DNA of 64,000 nucleotides, from the NCBI RefSeq assembly GCF_000724625.1, contig NZ_CP007139.1:2914001-2978000 (forward strand), in the 5' to 3' direction. How positions within the stretch are numbered: the stretch's first letter is position 1; each line of letters opens with the position of its first letter. The DNA comes from Fimbriimonas ginsengisoli Gsoil 348. Its GTDB lineage: Bacteria; Armatimonadota; Fimbriimonadia; Fimbriimonadales; Fimbriimonadaceae. This document shows positions 1-60,931 of this stretch, one piece after another. Under the pieces are notes generated by a model that worked only from the letters and a program-made list of their open reading frames with translations, was not told where the DNA came from and did not search any database. Made by a program: the position numbers and the translations under genes.

Positions 1-1393
1 CGTTCGGAAAGATCCGGCGCATCTGGACGGCCAGGTCACCATACTGCGTCCGGTGACTCTCGTCGACCAGCACGAAGATGTCCCGCGAGTCATTCTCGAA
101 TTCCCCGGCGGCAGCCGCCGCCCGGAACTTGTGAACTAGAGTCGTCACTACGTTTGACCGTGTTCCCTCGATTTGTCGGCGAAGGTCGGCGCCGGAGGTG
201 GCTCGATGAGTGTCCAGACCGCACCGCCTGAAGGTCGCTGAAAGCTGTTTGTCCAAGTCCACGCGATCCGTGACGAGAACGATGCGAGGATTCTCGATGT
301 CGAAGGACATGGCGATCGCACTCGCCAGCATCACCATTGTCAGCGACTTTCCCGAACCTTGGGTGTGCCAGATGACTCCGCCGGCGCGTGGCCCGAGACA
401 GGAGCCGTCTTCGATCCGAGCCATGGCGTTCTTCACGGCGTAAAACTGCTGGTACCGGGCAACCTTCTTGACCCCGCCATCGAAGACCACAAACCTCTGA
501 GCAACCTCCAGGAGGCGCGACGGTCGACACAGTTCGTAAAGGGCACGGTCTTGCTCACTAATTGTTCGACCAGAAGACTCCACGTTGTAAAACGCGCGCT
601 GTTCGCGGACGAAGTCGCGGCCGACCCTTTCCTTCTGAGATGCCACTAAGGATTCGGTGATGATTGACTGAAGCGTGGAATCAATGTCCTGACGGCTCTT
701 CCACACGGCCCAGAACTTTGCTTCGGTACCTACGGTTCCGTACTTCGCCTCATTCTTGTTCACCGCGAGGACGAGTTGGATGTACTTGTAGAACTCGGGA
801 ACGTAGGTCTGGCCTTGGTAAGCGAGAACGTCAGAGATGGCATGCTCCAGGCCGATCCCTGGGGCTTTGCATTCGATGTTGACAAACGGGATGCCGTTAA
901 CGAAAAGGACAAGGTCGAGATAACAGTGCTTGTCACTTCCAGCCCGCACGAGGTCGTATTCGCTGGTAACGTGGAACACGTTGTTGGCCGGATTGTCCCA
1001 GTCGACGTAGCGAAGGGTGAACGACTTGGCGTGGCCGTCGATCGTCTGATCGAAGCTCTTGCCGAGGCGGAGCAAGTCGTAGGTGAGCTCATTTGCCCGC
1101 ATCAGTCCCTCGACGAGCGGCACGTCCTCCAGCGCTGCAATGCCCCGCTTGACGTTTGCTGCAGAGAACTTGTGCTCACGGCCCTTGAAATGGATTGTGT
1201 TGATACGATTGAGTTGCGCCTGGACAATGTCGGTAAGAAGCACCTGGCTCGCCTTGCCGCCCCGCAAAGCCAAGGCTTCCTCCTGGGTCAGGTAGTAGAA
1301 CACGGCTCCTCCATCCTCGAGTTTGGAAAGCAGTGAGATAGCAGGAAGCTGCGATTGAACTACCTCATTTGGGTCAAAGTTCGGGCCGAGCAC
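1..1393 (-). CDS. hsdR: Type I restriction enzyme R subunit HsdR (N-terminal part, runs off the window)
   Basis: The restriction and translocation subunit of a type I system; it cleaves DNA after ATP-driven translocation. About 464 residues are visible. Reading the minus strand gives a PD-(D/E)XK nuclease domain with Asp160, the IECK motif near 173-176 and a following QGQTY, then a helicase Walker A (HTQGSGKS, about 343-350) and a DEAD-type VDESHRTQYG near the window edge. The start is a GTG with GAGGAG seven bases upstream and overlaps the end of the preceding gene by 20 bp, so it is translationally coupled. The family is usually about 1,000 residues, so the motor and C-terminal domains lie outside. 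No frameshift is seen in the visible part. It is the last gene of the operon visible here. Confidence 0.95.
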   Translation of the reverse strand, partial: MLGPNFDPNEVVQSQLPAISLLSKLEDGGAVFYYLTQEEALALRGGKASQVLLTDIVQAQLNRINTIHFKGREHKFSAANVKRGIAALEDVPLVEGLMRANELTYDLLRLGKSFDQTIDGHAKSFTLRYVDWDNPANNVFHVTSEYDLVRAGSDKHCYLDLVLFVNGIPFVNIECKAPGIGLEHAISDVLAYQGQTYVPEFYKYIQLVLAVNKNEAKYGTVGTEAKFWAVWKSRQDIDSTLQSIITESLVASQKERVGRDFVREQRAFYNVESSGRTISEQDRALYELCRPSRLLEVAQRFVVFDGGVKKVARYQQFYAVKNAMARIEDGSCLGPRAGGVIWHTQGSGKSLTMVMLASAIAMSFDIENPRIVLVTDRVDLDKQLSATFRRCGLDTHRATSGADLRRQIEGTRSNVVTTLVHKFRAAAAAGEFENDSRDIFVLVDESHRTQYGDLAVQMRRIFPN

Positions 1394-2153
1394 TTAGATC
1401 CTCCTCTGATCCACCAAGCACCAGGATGGCGTCGGCCCCGACTTTGACTTGATCGCGCAGAGGTTGGCCGTACCGAATTAAGTCGAGCGCGTTCCTCGGC
1501 GGGGTCCTCCTTACACTCGGAACTCGCCCAGCCACCGCCCGCGAAAAGGCAATGGCGCGGTCGACGACGTCTCCACTCGGTTCGCAGCAAAAGGCGCAAA
1601 CAAGTGGTTTGAGAATGGGCCGAACGTCTTTGCCACCCATAGTTTCGTATCGAACAAGTCGTTGCACCACGTTTGAATCTGCAATCGAAATAGCCCAGTA
1701 GTGGCACGGCGCAGGACAAATGCAGAGTGAACCGCACGTTTCCGCAGCCGACAGGCCAGCAAAAAATAGGTGCATTGCAACCAAACCTTTAGGGGTATTC
1801 GCGAGCAAATTCTCGACTTGCTGACCGGTCCCGCCCGGGTGATCTAGATGCCCATAGCTATCGGAGTTGCCTTGGTGCAGTTTTGCCTGAATTCGGAATC
1901 CGACCCAGCGGTCATTCGCCACAAACCACATTTCAAGGTCCGCGCCATTTCGTGATTCATTGAGCCCTCTCTGCCATGTCCTGACCCGGTCTGGGCATCG
2001 TTGCTGTAGCAAATCGAGGAAGTCAGAGACAGCACTTCTCTCGTCATAGAACTTGCCAGTGCCGCGCAGGCGATCGGCCTTTTCCGCAATCGTTTTGGAT
2101 GCTAGGGCAAAGGTCTCGCAGGGTTCCGTAGAAGGATTTTGGACCTTTATCAT
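1374..2153 (-). CDS. DUF6615-like protein, possible PD-(D/E)XK-fold nuclease, inside the type I RM operon
   Basis: Soluble 259-residue protein of unknown role. The middle contains GADLEMWF followed about 15 residues later by GFRIQAKL, an acidic strand then a QxK strand. This resembles the D...(E/Q)xK core of PD-(D/E)XK-fold proteins and the pattern I associate with DUF6615 (GAD-E-W followed by R-QAK). The C-terminal half has several Cys residues (TCGSLCICPAPC and CAFCC) that could bind metal. It overlaps hsdS by 4 bp upstream and hsdR by 20 bp downstream, so it is cotranscribed and coupled with both. The family assignment is from memory of the motif and is moderate; nuclease activity is inference. 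Confidence 0.6.
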   Translation of the reverse strand: MIKVQNPSTEPCETFALASKTIAEKADRLRGTGKFYDERSAVSDFLDLLQQRCPDRVRTWQRGLNESRNGADLEMWFVANDRWVGFRIQAKLHQGNSDSYGHLDHPGGTGQQVENLLANTPKGLVAMHLFFAGLSAAETCGSLCICPAPCHYWAISIADSNVVQRLVRYETMGGKDVRPILKPLVCAFCCEPSGDVVDRAIAFSRAVAGRVPSVRRTPPRNALDLIRYGQPLRDQVKVGADAILVLGGSEEDLSARPEL

Positions 2154-3343
2154 CGGAACTCCTCGAGGCGGACCTCGCCAGTCAGCAGCTTTTGCATCAG
2201 ACCCTTCTTCTGCTCGTTCAGCGCGTCCCGTTGCTTGCGCAGAATCAGAATCTCCTCGTCGAGAGCACTGAGGAGGTCGGCGATCCGGCGTTGCTCCTCG
2301 GCCTCCGGGATCTTCAGGCTGACTTTGAGGAAGTCGGTCACGGGAGCTTTCCGACGCCGGGCATTCGTGCCCTGGCTTATCGTCGTGTAGACGTAGCGCA
2401 TCGTGTCCGACTTGAACAGCGCCTTGAAGAAACGACGATCGCCATGCTCATCGCCAATCCAGCTCAGCGTCTCATAGGCGGGCGAGACGATGCCCTCGTA
2501 ATCGCTGAACGCGATGGACGCGTCCCAGAGGAGCATCGGATCGTAAACCAGGTCGCCCGGAACGATGTGCCTGTAATGGGCGTTGCTCACCGACGCCAAC
2601 TGCTTGGAGAACCGTTCGCTCTGGGGAAGGATGCCGTACACCTTAGAGCACGACAAGATGAGTGGCGTCTTGGTCGGCGCCCGATCGTCCTTGGGAGCGA
2701 AGAACCGGCCCAGCTTGGTCTCGCGCCAGGGTGTTGAAAACCCTGGGAAACGGCGGCGGCCGGTGAGGAGGTCTTCGGCGAGGGCTTTCTTGTAGGCAAC
2801 CTTCCGCTCGATCAGCGCATCCGCCGCCCGCACCGCCGCTTCCGAATCTTCGACGCGCTGGACGATTGCTCTCTGTTCTGGCAACTGAGGAAGATAAATG
2901 GGAAAGCGACAAATGTCGAGACGCGTGATATTTGGATCTTTCCGGCTGCTTGCCGCGATCCTTTTCCAAGCAGCCAGGTTGGCATTCAGCCACGAAAGGA
3001 CGAATTTCGGGTCGGCAATTGACGTGTCTACGGTGATGGCCGAGATCGCCTGGTTGAGAGCACAGGGAGCTGTAGTCAGGCCAGTTCTGCCAATCTGATT
3101 GAAGCCACCGTACATCGCAATCAGAACTGAGTTGGGCTCGACGACGATGCAGGAGGACTCGCGAAGCGCAAGCTCAGTTATCTTCTCTTCTGTCTTCCAG
3201 ATCGGACCGTTGGTTAAGTCCCCCGTCTTAATCCAAGGAATCGTCCCACCGTCAAAGTAGTCTGCCTGGCGGCGACGCGATGGTGTCGAACCTGAGCGGA
3301 TCGGTCCGAGATTCTCCAACGTGGCTCGTGTCCACCCTACCAT
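2150..3343 (-). CDS. hsdS: Type I restriction-modification specificity subunit HsdS (full length, two target-recognition domains)
   Basis: Recognises the bipartite DNA target for the HsdM/HsdR complex. The 397 residues show the classic duplicated layout: target-recognition domain 1 (about 1-150), a conserved helical spacer beginning LPQLPEQRAIVQRV (about 152-205), target-recognition domain 2 (about 205-340), and a second helical repeat with EEQRRIADLLSALDEEI near the C-terminus. Length is normal for the family. It overlaps the upstream unknown gene by 7 bp and the DUF6615-like gene by 4 bp. A second, half-length S gene sits at the other end of the operon. The recognised sequence cannot be deduced. 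Confidence 0.93.
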   Translation of the reverse strand: MVGWTRATLENLGPIRSGSTPSRRRQADYFDGGTIPWIKTGDLTNGPIWKTEEKITELALRESSCIVVEPNSVLIAMYGGFNQIGRTGLTTAPCALNQAISAITVDTSIADPKFVLSWLNANLAAWKRIAASSRKDPNITRLDICRFPIYLPQLPEQRAIVQRVEDSEAAVRAADALIERKVAYKKALAEDLLTGRRRFPGFSTPWRETKLGRFFAPKDDRAPTKTPLILSCSKVYGILPQSERFSKQLASVSNAHYRHIVPGDLVYDPMLLWDASIAFSDYEGIVSPAYETLSWIGDEHGDRRFFKALFKSDTMRYVYTTISQGTNARRRKAPVTDFLKVSLKIPEAEEQRRIADLLSALDEEILILRKQRDALNEQKKGLMQKLLTGEVRLEEFR

Positions 3344-4047
3344 TGGGGTTCCTCGCCCATGCTACGCATCAACATGCTTCCGAGCTGAGTGAGATTCAAT
3401 GAACCGTCCTCATCAGCATTCTCCAAACCAGTCAGGGCCAAATCGACTCCTCCGCCACTGAACTTAGCGGTTCGAACCAGCCCGAGGTCTAACAATCTTC
3501 TTCTCCAGCTCGCCTGAAGAGCGGCCGCGTCATGTTCTTGCTCCGGTGAGCCTGTGTGGGATACGCGCCCTTCCAAAACGTCGCTGTGCTTCTTCATCAT
3601 CGTTTGGTCATAGTCGCGGCCAATGAAAACTAGCCAGACCAGCTCGGGATCGGTTATCTGATCAAGGAGCCATAAGAGCTTCTTGGTGCCGTCGTGGTCA
3701 AACTCTTCAGCAGTCAGGCCATTCTTCAGCAACTCGGCGATTCGCGCTCGTCGATCATCCGTAAGTGAGCGAGCGGCCTGTGTCAGGGCATCTTCGACAA
3801 GGTCCGCCCCCTCTTCGGTTTTTGCGCGGGCCTCAAAGAGTTTCTTCTCAGTTTCCTGCAGCCGCGCTTCCAGTGCTTCCGCGAACTTGATCAGGCGATC
3901 CAGGCGCTGGCCTGGGATAAGATTGCCGGCAATCTCGGCAAGAAGATTCCCAGCGAAAGGGATTGCGCCAAGGGCACCCTTCACTGCGATTGCGGTGACG
4001 TCCGCGCCATTCGTGCCACCCACCTTCTCAGGCAAATTCTCAGACAT
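3337..4047 (-). CDS. Unknown protein: Gly-rich hydrophobic N-terminus, coiled coil, winged-helix-like tail
   Basis: I do not recognise the family. Residues about 15-50 are Ala/Gly/Ile-rich (GALGAIPFAGNLLAEIAGNL) and could be a membrane-active or amphipathic segment. Residues about 50-110 form a charged helical stretch likely to be a coiled coil (EALEARLQETEKKLFEARAK). The C-terminal third (LLDLGLVRTAKFSGGG then LTQLGSMLMRSMG) resembles a winged-helix unit. It overlaps the PD-(D/E)XK-like gene upstream by 8 bp and hsdS downstream by 7 bp, so it is firmly part of the RM operon. A membrane-acting accessory or a scaffold for the neighbouring nuclease are both possible; neither is shown. Confidence 0.75.
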   Translation of the reverse strand: MSENLPEKVGGTNGADVTAIAVKGALGAIPFAGNLLAEIAGNLIPGQRLDRLIKFAEALEARLQETEKKLFEARAKTEEGADLVEDALTQAARSLTDDRRARIAELLKNGLTAEEFDHDGTKKLLWLLDQITDPELVWLVFIGRDYDQTMMKKHSDVLEGRVSHTGSPEQEHDAAALQASWRRRLLDLGLVRTAKFSGGGVDLALTGLENADEDGSLNLTQLGSMLMRSMGEEPQW

Positions 4048-4597
4048 CTCCTTCCTCCAATAGTCGCTCCCGGGCTTTCAATTCGGTGACGGTCAGGCTC
4101 GTGTCGGTGCAGGCATCGATGATCAAGTCCCAGCGGTCGAGGTAGCTCTCGATGGAATGAACGGTGTACGGCGTCTTCGCGGGAGGCACCGCGACCGCTC
4201 GCACCTTGCTCTCGTTGTGCGCCTGCCCTTTCATGCCAGGCGTGTCCATCCAGAGTTGGTGGTTTGCCAAGACGATCTTCGAGAACTCGGAGGATGGAAC
4301 GACGTAGTACTCCCATCCCGCCAAAGACTCGATCTCTGGGATGCCCGCAAGCACCCAGAAGAAAGCGGGTCCGTAGTCGCGCTCGGCCTTGGTGCCGACC
4401 GAGACGGTTTTGTCCCGGCCGGGCCGATAAGTCTTAACCTGCACATGGGCGAACCGCGTCCCCGCCTTGTTGCTGACGAGCACGTCCGTGTTCGGACAGT
4501 TGCCCAGCGTCAAGACGGCCACCAGCCCCCGCCGGCAAAGTTCGCCCGCGACGAAGAACTGGCTCGACGCTCCTCGGTGGGATTTGTCTTCAGCCAT
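4040..4597 (-). CDS. PD-(D/E)XK nuclease-like accessory protein
   Basis: A 185-residue protein with the arrangement of a small PD-(D/E)XK-fold protein: an N-terminal helix (SSQFFVAGELCRRGL), then CPNTDVLV, a turn, and FAHVQVKTYR. In this layout D of TDVLV and the QVK motif would be the metal-binding core; similar proteins are filed as PDDEXK-like restriction or Holliday-junction-type nucleases. The substitution of Glu by Gln in QVK is common in this group. It lies 36 bp after the PIN-like gene and overlaps the next gene by 8 bp. The substrate is unknown; it may act as a second restriction effector. The fold call is fairly good, the function is inference. Confidence 0.65.
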   Translation of the reverse strand: MAEDKSHRGASSQFFVAGELCRRGLVAVLTLGNCPNTDVLVSNKAGTRFAHVQVKTYRPGRDKTVSVGTKAERDYGPAFFWVLAGIPEIESLAGWEYYVVPSSEFSKIVLANHQLWMDTPGMKGQAHNESKVRAVAVPPAKTPYTVHSIESYLDRWDLIIDACTDTSLTVTELKARERLLEEGDV

Positions 4598-4633
4598 TCG
4601 GCTCCCCCATCGGGGCCGATTCAGCCACGAACA

Positions 4634-5749
4634 TTACCATTCTTCGTCTTCTCCCGTGGCAATCACATCTTCGATTTCGGACACTTCGACCGAATCTTCG
4701 GTGAGCAGCTTTTCAAGTGATTCCGGTGACCCATCAAACTTATCGAGGTCAACGGTCACGGCAATGCGACCAGTGACTTCCACGTTCATGATCCTTTGCC
4801 CTTCGTAGTAGTGATCGTTGTCGTAGGAGGTCACGGAAATCGACTCCATCTCGTCAAGCCCCATCGTGTAGTAGTCCGATTTATAGATGTAGAAGTCGGC
4901 ATAAACCTCCATCTCAAATGAGAAGGGGATCGCTACAACACCACCTCCAAAATCCTCGACTTCTTCCCAGTCCAATCCTATATCCGCCGGGACGTCGTAC
5001 ATGCTGATGACGGCTTCGTTGTCATCGCTGGGTATCAGTCGCGAGGAGAAGCTGTACCCCTCGACCTCCGCCTCCATCTTGCTATGCACAAGGGCCAGGA
5101 TCTCGTTTTCGAGCTTCCGGAGGGACGGCATAAGTTCGGGTCCCACCAGAGCTTTGTGGAAATCAGGGAGCTTTACAAACGTCTCCAGTGAGGCATGTTG
5201 GGAGACCTCTGCCAGATTCCCCACAGCTTTCTTGAGCGCTTTGTCTGCAGTTACGATGTGGAGCGGCTTGTGGGTCGTCGCCAAATCCTTCACGACTTCA
5301 AAAATGAACCCGTCCGGGAATCCTTCCCGCTCCTTGATATGCTTGAAGGGTGAGTGCCCCGCAAAGTACCCGTCGACGACATTGGCTCCATGATGGTAGG
5401 CGACCGAATGAAGCACTACCTTGTGTGATTTAAGCCAAGCCGCATACTCATCGGTGATCCACCTGGCCGCGCCGTCTACTGCACTCTGGAGCGTGTCCAC
5501 GATCGGGGCGGGATCTGTCGGGAAATGCGACCCAGCCGATTTCATCGCGTTACGTGCGTTCGCGACCGCATTGCGCAGAGGCGCGCAATGATTCTCAACT
5601 AGGTGAGACTCGAACTCGCGGCTCGCGACGTCGGGCAGATGAATGGTGACTTCGTCCAGCTGAACGAGTTTTCCGAGCACCGAGAATGGCGCAGATTTCC
5701 TCTTGGGGTCAGAGCGCAGGACGTTTGTGTCTAGCACAACGTGAACCAA
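4634..5749 (-). CDS. PIN-like domain protein (DUF4935 type), putative RNase
   Basis: The N-terminus MVHVVLDTNVLRSDP carries the first PIN-fold acidic residue (LDTNVL). It is followed by helices with a conserved Glu (ASREFESHLVE) and later by a strand with Asp (IVTADKAL), as expected for the PIN metal site; this matches the DUF4935 PIN-like group. Residues about 200-371 form an extra acidic, aromatic-rich beta domain (DYYTMGLDEMESISV) ending in a highly acidic tail (EDVIATGEDEEW). Such proteins occur in defence islands and are presumed RNases. It starts 1 nt after the hsdM stop, so it is translated with the methylase. No adjacent antitoxin-like gene is obvious, unlike VapC pairs. Confidence 0.7.
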   Translation of the reverse strand: MVHVVLDTNVLRSDPKRKSAPFSVLGKLVQLDEVTIHLPDVASREFESHLVENHCAPLRNAVANARNAMKSAGSHFPTDPAPIVDTLQSAVDGAARWITDEYAAWLKSHKVVLHSVAYHHGANVVDGYFAGHSPFKHIKEREGFPDGFIFEVVKDLATTHKPLHIVTADKALKKAVGNLAEVSQHASLETFVKLPDFHKALVGPELMPSLRKLENEILALVHSKMEAEVEGYSFSSRLIPSDDNEAVISMYDVPADIGLDWEEVEDFGGGVVAIPFSFEMEVYADFYIYKSDYYTMGLDEMESISVTSYDNDHYYEGQRIMNVEVTGRIAVTVDLDKFDGSPESLEKLLTEDSVEVSEIEDVIATGEDEEW

Positions 5750-5750
5750 G

Positions 5751-7256
5751 CTAAATCACCTCCAGTTCGCGAAGATGATCGCGCAGCTTCGTCCTAACCT
5801 CGACCAACTCGCCTTCCAGCCGATCGATTTCCACCTGTAAGGCTTTCAGGTCCACGGGAGCCGCTTCCTCGAACGTGTCGATGTAGCGCGGGATATTCAG
5901 GTTGAAGTCGTTTTCGGAGATTTCGGCAACGGGTACGCGGCGGCTGTACTTTGGCCGTTCCTCCCGGCCGTGGTAAACAGCGGCGATCGCCTCGATGTCC
6001 GACTCGCGAAGATAGTTCTGGTTCTTGCCGGCTTGGAAGTCGCGGCTGGCGTCGATGAACACTACGTCGGTCCGCCCTGCGTTCTCTCCTCCAGGTTCTC
6101 GGGAGCGGTCGAAAATCAGAATGGCGGCCGGAATGCCGGTGCCGAAGAACAGGTTCTCAGGCAAACCGATCACAGCGTCAAGCACGTTCTCCTCGATGAG
6201 CTTCTGACGGATTCTTCCTTCGGCGCCGCCACGGAAAAGGACGCCATGTGGGACGATGACGCCCACCCGTCCCTCGCGTGGCTTCGCCGTCTCCACCATG
6301 TGCGTTATGAACGCGAAATCCGCCTTGCTCTTGGGTGGGAGCCCGCGCCAGTAGCGCTTGAAACGGTCCTGATCGGCGAGCTCGTGGCCCCACTTGTCGA
6401 GGGAGAAGGGCGGATTCGCCACGACGACGTCGAAGCGGATGAGCTGGTCGCCTTCGATAAGGAGCGGGTTGTTCAGGGTGTCGCCCCAGACGATTTTCGC
6501 GTCGTCCTCCTTATGCAGGAACATGTTCATCTTGCATAGCGCCCACGTGCTTCCGTTCACTTCCTGGCCATAGAGCGAATAATCATGATTGCCCTTGATT
6601 TCGTGAGCGACCTCGTTGAGCAAAGAGCCTGATCCGCACGCTGGATCGCATATTCGAGACCCTGGCTTCGGCTTGAGCAATTTGCCCAAGAGCTTCGAGA
6701 CCATTTCCGGCGTGTAGAACTCGCCACCCTTCTTGCCAGCACCGCTGGCGAAGTTCTTGATGAGATACATATAGGCGTTGCCGAGCAACTCCAAGTCAAC
6801 CCGGCTGGGCCTTACATCGAGGCCGCTGAAATCCTCAAGCAGGTTCTTGAGGCGACGATTCCTGTCTTTGGTTTCGCCAAGGTTGTCGCTATTGAAGCTG
6901 ATCTTCCGGAACACCCCCTCGAGCTTTTGCCGGTTGGCATCTTCAATGTGCTCCAAGGCGATGTCGATCAGCTCGCCGACATTATCGCGATCGCGGTTCT
7001 TGTAGAGGTAATCAAAGTCGCTTCGCTCGGGCAAGACGAACCGCTCACGGGCCAGCTGCCGCTCGATCATCTCCACGTTTCCACCATAGCGAGCTTCGAG
7101 CTCCGCCCGACGCTCCTTGGCGACGTCCGAGAGGTACTTCAAGAAGAGCATCACGAGGATGTAGTTCTTGTAGTCGCTCGGATCGATGACCCCGCGGAAG
7201 GTATCGCACGCCTTCCAGAGAGTCGAGTTCAGTTCTTCCTGGGTGATCGGTTTCAT
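5751..7256 (-). CDS. hsdM: Type I restriction-modification methyltransferase subunit HsdM
   Basis: N6-adenine DNA methyltransferase of the type I complex. At 501 residues it is of normal length. The N-terminal helical domain (about 1-165) is followed by GEFYTPEMVSKLLGKLL, the AdoMet-binding motif I DPACGSGSLLNE (about 205-215), and the catalytic motif IV NPPFSL (about 280), then a C-terminal helical coiled tail (VEIDRLEGELVEVRTKL) that contacts HsdS. The stop is 1 nt from the PIN-like gene and its ATG overlaps the half-size S gene by 4 bp. Catalytic residues are intact, so methylation should be active. Confidence 0.96.
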   Translation of the reverse strand: MKPITQEELNSTLWKACDTFRGVIDPSDYKNYILVMLFLKYLSDVAKERRAELEARYGGNVEMIERQLARERFVLPERSDFDYLYKNRDRDNVGELIDIALEHIEDANRQKLEGVFRKISFNSDNLGETKDRNRRLKNLLEDFSGLDVRPSRVDLELLGNAYMYLIKNFASGAGKKGGEFYTPEMVSKLLGKLLKPKPGSRICDPACGSGSLLNEVAHEIKGNHDYSLYGQEVNGSTWALCKMNMFLHKEDDAKIVWGDTLNNPLLIEGDQLIRFDVVVANPPFSLDKWGHELADQDRFKRYWRGLPPKSKADFAFITHMVETAKPREGRVGVIVPHGVLFRGGAEGRIRQKLIEENVLDAVIGLPENLFFGTGIPAAILIFDRSREPGGENAGRTDVVFIDASRDFQAGKNQNYLRESDIEAIAAVYHGREERPKYSRRVPVAEISENDFNLNIPRYIDTFEEAAPVDLKALQVEIDRLEGELVEVRTKLRDHLRELEVI

Positions 7257-7843
7257 TGCTTTGTGATTTGCCTCAGGGCGGCGGCCTCGAGAGCGGCTTC
7301 AATTTGCTGGTCGCGTAGAGATTCCAAATGACCCACGAGGTTCCGCTCTTGCCGGCGAAGGCTCTGCACGTCGGCAACGCGCTTCTGGGTCTCCATGGTG
7401 GCTAGGGGCAGTTCTAAGCGCGCCAACGTCTCCTTGGAGACGGTGGGGATGTATGAGCCGCGGGCCTCGTTGGCTAGCTTCTCCTGGACCTCGTCACGGT
7501 TGATCCACCACGCAAGGTAATCGGGCAGTGCGTCATCAGCTTGGAGCCTGAACACATAGAGTGGTGCCGTGGCGACGATGGGACCGTCAAGGCCTTGAAT
7601 CACCGCCGCTTTATAATTTGCACCTCTCGGGCGAAGAAGGATATCGCCTGGATTCAGGACATAGCGCCACAGTCGGTCGCCCAGATCCATTCGTGCGAGC
7701 TTGTCATAAGCGATCCCCTCATCGGTGACGTCGCCGAGAGTGATGAGACGATGGGGCGCTTCGGGCACATCCGTGATGGCAGACCTGACCTGAAAGCCAG
7801 TCCGCAGTTCACCGAGGGATCCAAGCGTAACAATGTGCGCCAC
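7253..7843 (-). CDS. Half-length HsdS-like specificity protein (single target-recognition domain)
   Basis: First gene of the RM operon. The 196-residue product reads as one target-recognition domain (VTLGSLGELRTGFQVRS, then LNPGDILLRPRG) followed by one conserved helical region (SYIPTVSKETLARLELPLAT and a C-terminal coiled helix). Half-size S subunits are known to dimerise into a symmetric specificity unit. Here it coexists with a full-length HsdS in the same operon, which is unusual. I chose the GTG at 7843 rather than the in-frame ATG at 7876, because a perfect TATAAT lies six bases before the GTG, inside what would otherwise be codons 8-9. The longer form (207 aa) is the alternative. Confidence 0.82.
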   Translation of the reverse strand: MAHIVTLGSLGELRTGFQVRSAITDVPEAPHRLITLGDVTDEGIAYDKLARMDLGDRLWRYVLNPGDILLRPRGANYKAAVIQGLDGPIVATAPLYVFRLQADDALPDYLAWWINRDEVQEKLANEARGSYIPTVSKETLARLELPLATMETQKRVADVQSLRRQERNLVGHLESLRDQQIEAALEAAALRQITKQ

Positions 7844-7849
7844 AAGGCC

Positions 7850-7881
7850 ATTATACGCACTGTCTGCTATAGTCATGTCAA
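7850..7881 (-). promoter_or_regulatory. Promoter of the RM/defence operon (leaderless type)
   Basis: On the minus strand TATAAT (7850-7855) lies six bases before the GTG start at 7843. A perfect TTGACA (7876-7881) is present 20 bp further upstream; that spacer is longer than the usual 17, so the -35 assignment is weak. No Shine-Dalgarno precedes the GTG, fitting a leaderless message. Confidence 0.5.
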
Positions 7882-7984
7882 ATGTGCATGGTAATTTTGA
7901 AGAAAATCATTTTCGCGATTGACAGGCCTTAACCCCTGGCGGTACAGTTCTAATCGTTGGAGTCGGCTGAGAAGCCACAAAGAC

Positions 7985-8100
7985 TGCGGTAGCAGCCGCA
8001 CAAATGAAAGCGGGGGCTCGAAAGAGCCCCCACGACAAATCGACATCCGCTGGTAGCAGCCAGCGACACGACTAGTTCCGCCCCGGAGGGGCAAACTAGG
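7985..8100. repeat. Cluster of four short intergenic hairpins with a recurring TAGCAG loop
   Basis: The gap between the RM operon and 8194 holds: stem TGCGG with loop TAGCAG (7985-8000); GGGGGCTC-GAAA-GAGCCCCC (8012-8031), a perfect 8-bp stem with a GAAA tetraloop; stem CGCTGG again with loop TAGCAG (8048-8065); and a larger imperfect hairpin with CTAGTT/AACTAG outer arms and GCCCC/GGGGC inner arms (8072-8099). No T-run follows, so these look like REP-type repeats more than intrinsic terminators. Nothing coding was seen in 7882-8193. Confidence 0.7.
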
Positions 8101-8193
8101 TACAGGGTGGCACAACTACATGGTCACCGTCAACCTGGTTCCCGCCGTGGCTCTCGTCTTATGCCGACCGATAGGGGCCGGCGGGAGAATTCA

Positions 8194-8430
8194 ATGGCAG
8201 TCTATAAATACAGCTCGTACGTGAAAACGTCGACGAGCGACGCGTTTGACACAATCTATGAACCCGGTTCGAAGCCCGCGCATTCGGGCATTTACCGTTG
8301 CGAGGGCTGCGGCAAGGAGATTTCGCACAATGCAGGTGTCTCGTTGCCGCCCCAGAACCACCATCAGCACACCGTAGCCCAAGGCAAGGTGCGTTGGCGG
8401 ATGAGCGTGTACGCTGAGACCAACGGCTAG
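8194..8430 (+). CDS. Small zinc-ribbon-like conserved protein (78 aa)
   Basis: A 78-residue soluble protein of a widespread unnamed family. A Cys pair in YRCEGCGKEI (CxxC) and the motif SLPPQNHHQHT supply likely Zn ligands. The N-terminus MAVYKYSSYVKTSTSDAFD and the phrase PGSKPAHSGIYRCEGCG are the family's signature as I remember it. Its function is not known; some genomes label it protein L. I chose the ATG at 8194 because GGGAG precedes it by six bases, although the frame stays open upstream. It stands alone, between hairpins and followed by a strong hairpin. Confidence 0.78.
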   Translation: MAVYKYSSYVKTSTSDAFDTIYEPGSKPAHSGIYRCEGCGKEISHNAGVSLPPQNHHQHTVAQGKVRWRMSVYAETNG

Positions 8431-8445
8431 CTCTTACAACACGGT

Positions 8446-8488
8446 CCAGAACGTCCCCGATCGTCTACGACGACTGGGGGCGTTCTGG
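8446..8488 (+). terminator. Strong hairpin after the small zinc-ribbon gene
   Basis: CCAGAACG-T-CCCC pairs with GGGG-G-CGTTCTGG across a 16-17 nt loop, starting 15 bp after the stop of the gene ending at 8430. No U-tract follows, so termination is likely but not certain. The rest of 8489-8634 shows nothing I can identify. Confidence 0.5.
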
Positions 8489-8634
8489 CATGTGGCGTAC
8501 TTGTGGGTCAATTCGTGGGTTAGTTCTAGCCGTTAAAAGCCGTGGACCTCAGCGGAAAAGCGCATGCAGTCTTGGCGGCATCTTCTGAGCTCTGTAGATT
8601 TGAATCAAATCGTTCTCCAAACCTACACAAATCA

Positions 8635-8710
8635 TGGCGGCCTCGGAGGGACTCGAACCCCCGACGCCCTCCTTAGGACGGAGGCGCTCTATCCTCTGAG
8701 CTACGAGGCC
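8635..8710 (-). tRNA. tRNA-Arg (anticodon CCT)
   Basis: The minus strand begins GGCCTCG at 8710 and ends with the pairing CGAGGCC, discriminator G and an encoded CCA at 8635. The D-arm (AGCTCAGAGGATAGAGC), the anticodon stem CCTCC/GGAGG with loop GTCCTAA (anticodon CCT), and the T-arm with GTTCGAGTC are all present. It reads AGG codons. Confidence 0.96.
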
Positions 8711-8764
8711 GCAGTTTCATGAGATTACCTGGGGAAGCAGGGCGAGGCGGGGCACAATTCCTGG

Positions 8765-9079
8765 GTGGAACGAATCCCTGAATCCGATTGGAAGGTGCTG
8801 CGTCAGCTCGCGCTGGTCGCTCTCGATCGGCTCTGCGCCCAAATCGTCGGCGAAATCACGGTGATCGCCTCGAACGAGGCGATCACGATGCACGAACGGT
8901 TTGGTGAGATATACGGGTTGATTGGAGATCGAAACAAGGACATCGCAAGGACCTTCGATGGGCCGAGCCGATCAAGTGCGCCGCTAAAGCTTCTCCAAAT
9001 GAGGTCGTTGGACCTCGTTTCGGACGAGGAACTCGGCGGTTCTCCGAGGATGTTCGGGCGTTTATCCAACGAGTCCTAG
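8765..9079 (+). CDS. Conserved hypothetical helical protein
   Basis: A 104-residue, mostly helical, probably cytoplasmic protein. The pattern SDWKVLRQLALVALDRLC, then MHERFGEIYGLIGDRNKDIARTFDGPSRSSA and LVSDEELG recalls a broadly distributed bacterial protein of unknown function with the core W-x-x-R...ALdRfC...hERy...RD...FD..RRS.A. The start is GTG. Its TAG stop shares the CTAG tetranucleotide with the TAG stop of the convergent PhyH gene. No operon partners. Confidence 0.7.
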   Translation: MERIPESDWKVLRQLALVALDRLCAQIVGEITVIASNEAITMHERFGEIYGLIGDRNKDIARTFDGPSRSSAPLKLLQMRSLDLVSDEELGGSPRMFGRLSNES

Positions 9080-60777: not shown

Positions 60778-60931
60778 TGGCACTGGCATCTTGCCAGTGG
60801 GTCCCAAGGGCATCTTGCCCTTGGCCCTTCACACGACCGGTACGGTCGTGGGGGTTCATCGGCTGGGAACCGATGCTCCGGTTACACGACCAGGATGGTC
60901 GTGATACACGCGGGCTGGAAGCCCGTGCCAC
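60778..60931. repeat. Tandem array of six hairpins with variable stems and recurring loops
   Basis: Directly after the hydrolase stop: stem CACTGGC with loop ATCTT, stem CCAAGGGC with loop ATCTT, stem CACGACC with loop GGTAC, stem CATCGG with loop CTGGGAA, stem CACGACC with loop AGGAT, and stem CGGGC with loop TGGAA. Identical loops on different stems, and identical stems with different loops, are both present. It fills the whole gap to the convergent DoxX gene. Confidence 0.82.

What the first reader, a model, noticed from the sequence alone, without database searches (positions are those of the whole stretch)
7985..8100. Hairpins with constant TAGCAG loops and different stems
TGCGG-TAGCAG-CCGCA and CGCTGG-TAGCAG-CCAGCG lie 50 bp apart: the stems are unrelated but fully paired, while the loop is identical. 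A simple repeat copy would keep the stem. This implies compensatory change with loop conservation, suggesting selection on structure plus loop or a copying process that rewrites stems.
Basis: seen in the sequence. Interest (0 to 1): 0.55.

Follow-up and report, generated by a model that had tools for sequence, protein, structure and literature searches.

The report
Hairpin-rich leader with repeated loops
Two small hairpins with the same loop sit in a strongly folded stretch just in front of a small zinc-ribbon gene on a genomic island; this looks like one structured RNA leader seen only here, not a family of hairpins spread through the genome.

Summary
The hairpins are real: TGCGG-TAGCAG-CCGCA (7985-8000) and CGCTGG-TAGCAG-CCAGCG (8048-8065). 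Their stems share the two inner G-C pairs, so the constant unit is the decamer GGTAGCAGCC. Shuffles of 7940-8200 gave a same-loop, different-stem pair (loop of 6 or more) in 0 of 20000 cases. They are hairpins 2 and 4 of five in a stretch that folds well (7955-8193, z -4.9). A promoter-like site (7919-7948) lies upstream and a zinc-ribbon ORF (8194-8430) downstream. Two other loops are GNRA, which favours + strand RNA. The stretch lies near one end of a 30-kb island bounded by a 49-bp copy of a tRNA-Arg 3' end in Fimbriimonas ginsengisoli Gsoil 348. No homologue turned up in Rfam, in two viral pattern scans, or in 290 other phylum genomes, where one short match fell inside another ORF. In the own genome only these two TAGCAG hairpins reach five Watson-Crick pairs among the 200 of 357 candidate sites that were listed. 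Best reading: a structured leader with twin loops for one partner. Its function is inferred. Low interest.

The parts
7919..7948 (+). sigma-70-like promoter, TTGACA-18-TACAGT
   Evidence: 10 of 12 consensus matches, the only one in 7700-8700 (0.3 expected by chance)
7965..7976 (+). hairpin 1, GGCT-GAGA-AGCC (GNRA loop)
   Evidence: sequence; pairs in the fold
7985..8000 (+). hairpin 2, TGCGG-TAGCAG-CCGCA; may close further by a U-G pair to an AGCA tetraloop
8012..8031 (+). hairpin 3, GGGGGCTC-GAAA-GAGCCCCC (GNRA loop)
   Evidence: read on the - strand it scores as terminator-like
8048..8065 (+). hairpin 4, CGCTGG-TAGCAG-CCAGCG, same loop and inner two pairs as hairpin 2
8072..8099 (+). hairpin 5, CTAGTT-(GCCCC-GGA-GGGGC)-AACTAG
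   Evidence: competes with other pairings in longer folds
8139..8187 (+). helix TTCCCGCCG/CGGCGGGAG that would cover the likely ribosome-binding site GGGAG
   Evidence: inferred role
8194..8430 (+). ORF for a 78-residue zinc-ribbon protein; homologues in 61 genome loci, 57 viral loci and 142 plasmid records
   Evidence: no Pfam or NCBIfam family above its cut-off
8635..8683 (.). 49-bp direct repeat (3' part of tRNA-Arg CCT); other copy at G000:C1:2892528-2892576, about 30.1 kb away: island end

Best explanation
The two hairpins are domains 2 and 4 of one structured RNA, about 240 bases long, transcribed on the + strand from a promoter at 7919-7948 and forming the 5' leader of the zinc-ribbon gene at 8194 on a tRNA-Arg-borne island. 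Shown: the hairpins, the promoter-like site, the unusual folding stability, the ORF, the island repeat. Inferred: that it is transcribed, that it controls the downstream gene (for example by folding the ribosome-binding site), and that the two GGUAGCAGCC units are twin docking sites for one protein or RNA, so that loop and inner pairs are kept while the outer stems need only pair.
For: Fold z -4.9 for 7955-8193, -4.4 for 7955-8110, -5.8 for 7985-8065, each 0 of 200 shuffles as stable; five successive hairpins; two GNRA loops on the + strand only; one promoter-like site, on the + strand, ending about 15 bases before hairpin 1; ORF with many homologues 94 bases after hairpin 5; same-loop pair in 0 of 20000 shuffles.
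Against: No homologue of the leader, so no covariation test. Among 116 leaders of zinc-ribbon relatives the typical z is near 0 (median of 117 with the window's own -0.2), only four reach about -4.4 or lower, and none shares the TAGCAG hairpins. The - strand folds well too (z -3.4). The promoter scan expects 0.3 hits by chance. The part next to the gene, 8100-8193, is not unusually stable (z -1.1). No expression data.
Confidence: 0.45

Rival explanations
1. A separate small RNA (about 7955-8110) that soaks up a regulator through its repeated loops, working like CsrB/RsmZ.
For: Constant loop on different stems in a string of hairpins with A-rich linkers is the layout of such RNAs (CsrB/RsmZ layout recalled).
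Against: Only two copies of the loop; the CsrA motif GGA is in the loop of hairpin 5 only, not in the TAGCAG loops; no + strand terminator-like site was found in 7700-8700.
Confidence: 0.15
2. The hairpins act on the - strand as terminators that stop leftward transcription from the tRNA-Arg side before it enters the restriction-modification genes (first ORF starts at 7876 on the - strand).
For: Hairpins 3 and 2 are the two terminator-like sites found, both on the - strand; - strand z -3.4.
Against: 1.1 such sites are expected by chance; T tails are poor; does not explain the identical loops or the GNRA loops on the + strand.
Confidence: 0.12
3. Coincidence inside a GC-rich, hairpin-prone stretch: hairpins under structural selection, loop identity without meaning.
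For: A pattern picked by eye from 64 kb; no second instance seen in genome or relatives; a second same-loop pair, with a 5-base loop, exists elsewhere in the window.
Against: 0 of 20000 shuffles and 0 of 200 window-sized Markov copies for loops of 6 or more.
Confidence: 0.2
4. DNA-level sites: hairpins or inverted repeats bound by a recombinase or transfer protein of the island, since they lie about 0.6 kb from its end.
For: Position near the 49-bp end repeat.
Against: No recombinase among the 14 of 22 greedy ORFs (70 aa or more) of the island that were scanned; GNRA loops point to RNA; the other island end was not scanned for such hairpins beyond the genome-wide decamer search (no site there).
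Confidence: 0.08

Closest known systems
Structured 5' leaders (cis-regulatory RNAs) of small bacterial genes
   Same: promoter-like site, string of stable hairpins, possible folding of the ribosome-binding site, ORF directly downstream
   Different: no match to any of 4227 Rfam families over 7955-8193 even at E 10; no homologue, hence no consensus; no evidence of a ligand
CsrB/RsmZ-type protein-sequestering RNAs (recalled; listing and abstract starts only)
   Same: same loop repeated on different stems
   Different: two copies only, loop UAGCAG and not GGA
Integrative genomic islands in tRNA genes
   Same: 49-bp repeat of the tRNA-Arg 3' part, 30.1 kb, carries type I restriction-modification genes
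   Different: no integrase seen among the ORFs scanned

Membership tests
Rfam families | covariance-model score at or above the curated threshold | tested here: not met
   in 7800-8800 only the tRNA reaches its threshold; none of 8 matches up to E 10 overlaps 7955-8193
Dispersed palindromic repeats (REP-like) | many copies across the genome | tested here: not met
   9 decamer sites, 2 with 5 Watson-Crick pairs; 2 of 200 listed TAGCAG sites pair fully
CsrB/RsmZ-type RNA | several GGA motifs in hairpin loops | tested here: not met
   GGA in the loop of hairpin 5 only, of five hairpins
CsrB/RsmZ-type RNA | csrA in the genome and binding of CsrA | not tested
   genome not searched for csrA
Structured leader RNA | folds more stably than shuffled sequence | tested here: met
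Structured leader RNA | covariation across homologues | tested here: inconclusive
   no homologue found: 60 relatives, 290 other genomes of the phylum (at most two candidates per genome were scored there)
Structured leader RNA | transcribed with, and controlling, the downstream gene | not testable with these tools
   needs RNA-seq and reporters
Integrative island in a tRNA gene | direct repeat of the tRNA 3' end at both ends | tested here: met
   49 identical bases
Integrative island in a tRNA gene | own integrase | tested here: inconclusive
   none among 14 of 22 greedy island ORFs scanned with Pfam; 8 not scanned

The most novel reading that the evidence does not exclude
An undescribed island-borne leader RNA in which two identical GGUAGCAGCC hairpin heads form a two-site platform for the zinc-ribbon protein encoded just downstream, which would control its own synthesis. 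Zinc-ribbon relatives in other phyla carry other, unrelated structured leaders, so leader control could be a habit of this protein family.
Probability: 0.1. Interest if true: 0.5.

Novelty: new member of a known kind. Interest (0 to 1): 0.2.

Why it matters
If the leader is real it adds one undescribed structured RNA, with a twin-loop layout, to a widespread but unstudied family of small zinc-ribbon genes found on phages, plasmids and islands. The claim that stems were rewritten around a kept loop would matter more, but nothing here supports it.

Tried and rejected
Genome-wide hairpin family: rejected as far as seen; the two TAGCAG pattern lists were capped at 100 rows each (of 243 and 114).

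Homologues of the decamer pair: 11 viral contigs matched the spaced decamer. Read, they are mostly tandem repeats; none has two fully Watson-Crick 5-pair hairpins with different stems. In L133 the unit does pair (six pairs, one G-U), but as a tandem repeat with the same stem. Of 200 other genomes of the phylum one matched the pattern (G240, unpaired), against three genomes for the reversed control pattern. A stricter pattern with both stems found nothing in viral contigs.

Homologues by DNA similarity: the window's 7930-8200 in 60 relatives, none; 7950-8110 in 290 other genomes of the phylum, one 36-base match in G067 that lies inside an ORF and does not share the hairpins; 7900-8640 in plasmids and phages, matches almost only over the zinc-ribbon ORF.

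A covariance model of the two hairpins found nothing in the genome, not even the two hairpins, so it says nothing.

Duplication of one hairpin: flanks of the two hairpins show no similarity beyond the decamer (one search lists a 10-base repeat only).

Leaders of zinc-ribbon relatives: 118 loci, no repeated TAGCAG loop; repeated 4-base loops in L020, L031 and L121. GNRA hairpins of 5 pairs are not a trait of these leaders (3 on the + strand, 9 on the - strand in 118). A resemblance to the leaders of L026 and L081 (GC hairpin, then CATCCGCT) was considered and not accepted: the pseudoknot of those leaders does not form in the window (and by eye).

An automatic pseudoknot scan was positive for 20 of 124 leaders but also for 10 of 124 shuffled ones, so it proves little by itself.

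Full report
What is there. TAGCAG as such is not enriched in the window (9 against 11.4 expected).

Is it more than chance? For base composition, yes: two hairpins of at least five Watson-Crick pairs with the same loop of six or more and different stems occurred in 0 of 200 Markov copies of the window and 0 of 20000 dinucleotide shuffles of 7940-8200 (4 of 20000 if loops of four or five count). These figures overstate the surprise, because the pattern was picked by eye from 64 kb. The window holds one more same-loop pair, with a five-base loop, near 60787 and 60811.

Where it lies. The genome has 5,231,762 bases in one contig, the exact length given for Fimbriimonas ginsengisoli Gsoil 348 (passages of PMC4072686). 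The window's tRNA-Arg (CCT) at 8635-8710 on the - strand and a second place 30.1 kb to the left share 49 identical bases, the 3' part of the tRNA gene: the ends of a genomic island. The island holds type I restriction-modification genes: HsdM and HsdS by Pfam, and an HsdR-like ORF that I named by reading and did not scan. It also holds a PIN-domain gene, a YgjP-like peptidase, two AAA/WD40 proteins and a Crp-like regulator. The hairpins lie near the tRNA end, between the - strand restriction genes (first ORF from 7876) and a + strand ORF for a 78-residue zinc-ribbon protein (8194-8430). No recombinase was seen among the 14 of 22 greedy island ORFs that were scanned.

The local anatomy. Five hairpins follow one another between 7965 and 8099. 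Hairpins 1 and 3 have GNRA loops (GAGA, GAAA) on the + strand, which favours the + strand RNA as the working form. Their linkers are A-rich. The stretch folds far better than its shuffles: z -4.9 for 7955-8193, -4.4 for 7955-8110, -5.8 for 7985-8065. The - strand also folds well (z -3.4) and the part next to the ORF does not stand out (8100-8193, z -1.1). The only promoter-like site in 7700-8700 is TTGACA-18-TACAGT at 7919-7948 on the + strand (0.3 expected by chance), which would start a transcript just before hairpin 1. A helix over the likely ribosome-binding site (8139-8187) is possible. Hairpins 3 and 2 also score as terminator-like on the - strand (2 found, 1.1 expected). By eye, CGGCTG at 7964-7969 could pair with CAGCCG of hairpin 2 or CAGCC of hairpin 4, an alternative fold not tested.

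Is it a family? Not as far as seen. All nine GGTAGCAGCC sites of the genome were read; only these two reach five Watson-Crick pairs, and one other (L004) reaches five only with two G-U pairs. Patterns for TAGCAG with the same base class at the fifth pair gave 243 and 114 sites, of which 100 each were listed; again only these two pair fully. The spaced decamer pair was found in one of 200 other genomes of the phylum, unpaired, and in 11 viral contigs that are mostly tandem repeats. The leader has no DNA relative in 60 relatives or in 290 other genomes of the phylum apart from a 36-base match inside another ORF, and no Rfam match.

The downstream gene. The zinc-ribbon protein is absent from 290 other genomes of the phylum except for two weak matches. 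It is widespread elsewhere: 61 loci in named genomes, 57 in viral contigs, 142 plasmid records and 4 phage records. It was probably acquired with the island. The leaders of 116 relatives are mostly not unusually stable; with the window's own the median z is -0.2, and four others reach about -4.4 or lower (L081, L074, L032, L026). None shares the TAGCAG hairpins.

Reading. The best-supported account is one structured leader RNA of the zinc-ribbon gene, with hairpins 2 and 4 as twin sites for one partner. Structure, promoter-like site and ORF are shown; transcription, control and binding are inferred. A separate sponge-like RNA, - strand terminators, DNA-level sites and coincidence remain possible. 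The finding is a single instance in one genome, so interest is low.

Noticed in passing
L021, L026, L027 (same as L076), L081, L086, L156: 150 bases before the zinc-ribbon ORF: Leaders of zinc-ribbon genes in several loci (L021 Acetobacter, L026 Sphingomonas and L027 Novosphingobium among them) share a layout read by eye: GC-rich hairpin, then a hairpin whose loop pairs downstream right after GTCAAG (pseudoknot), with different pairs in different loci. No Rfam match in L021, L026, L027, L081, L086. The automatic scan did not separate real from shuffled leaders well (20 against 10 of 124).
   Followed up: partly
37 distinct loci among L058-L129, just before the zinc-ribbon ORF: A conserved leader with CATCCAGCGTGGATGGAATGCCAGTAAC, a variable stretch, then CGTAGTAGC(G/T)TTGTGCC and a ribosome-binding site. 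Loci were picked by the second motif, so only the first part is independent. RNAalifold found almost no common structure (-1.4 kcal/mol).
   Followed up: partly
G000:C1:2892528-2922683 (window 1-8683 is its right part): A 30.1-kb island with a 49-bp direct repeat of tRNA-Arg, type I restriction-modification genes and three large proteins (719, 774 and 579 residues) without a Pfam match; no integrase seen in the part scanned.
   Followed up: partly
window 60787 and 60811: Second same-loop pair of hairpins with different stems in the window, loop ATCTT.
   Followed up: no
Small plasmids of enterobacteria, for example NC_002119.1 4564-4654: The zinc-ribbon relatives on small mobilizable plasmids are annotated 'protein L' or 'hypothetical protein'; no function is given.
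   Followed up: no
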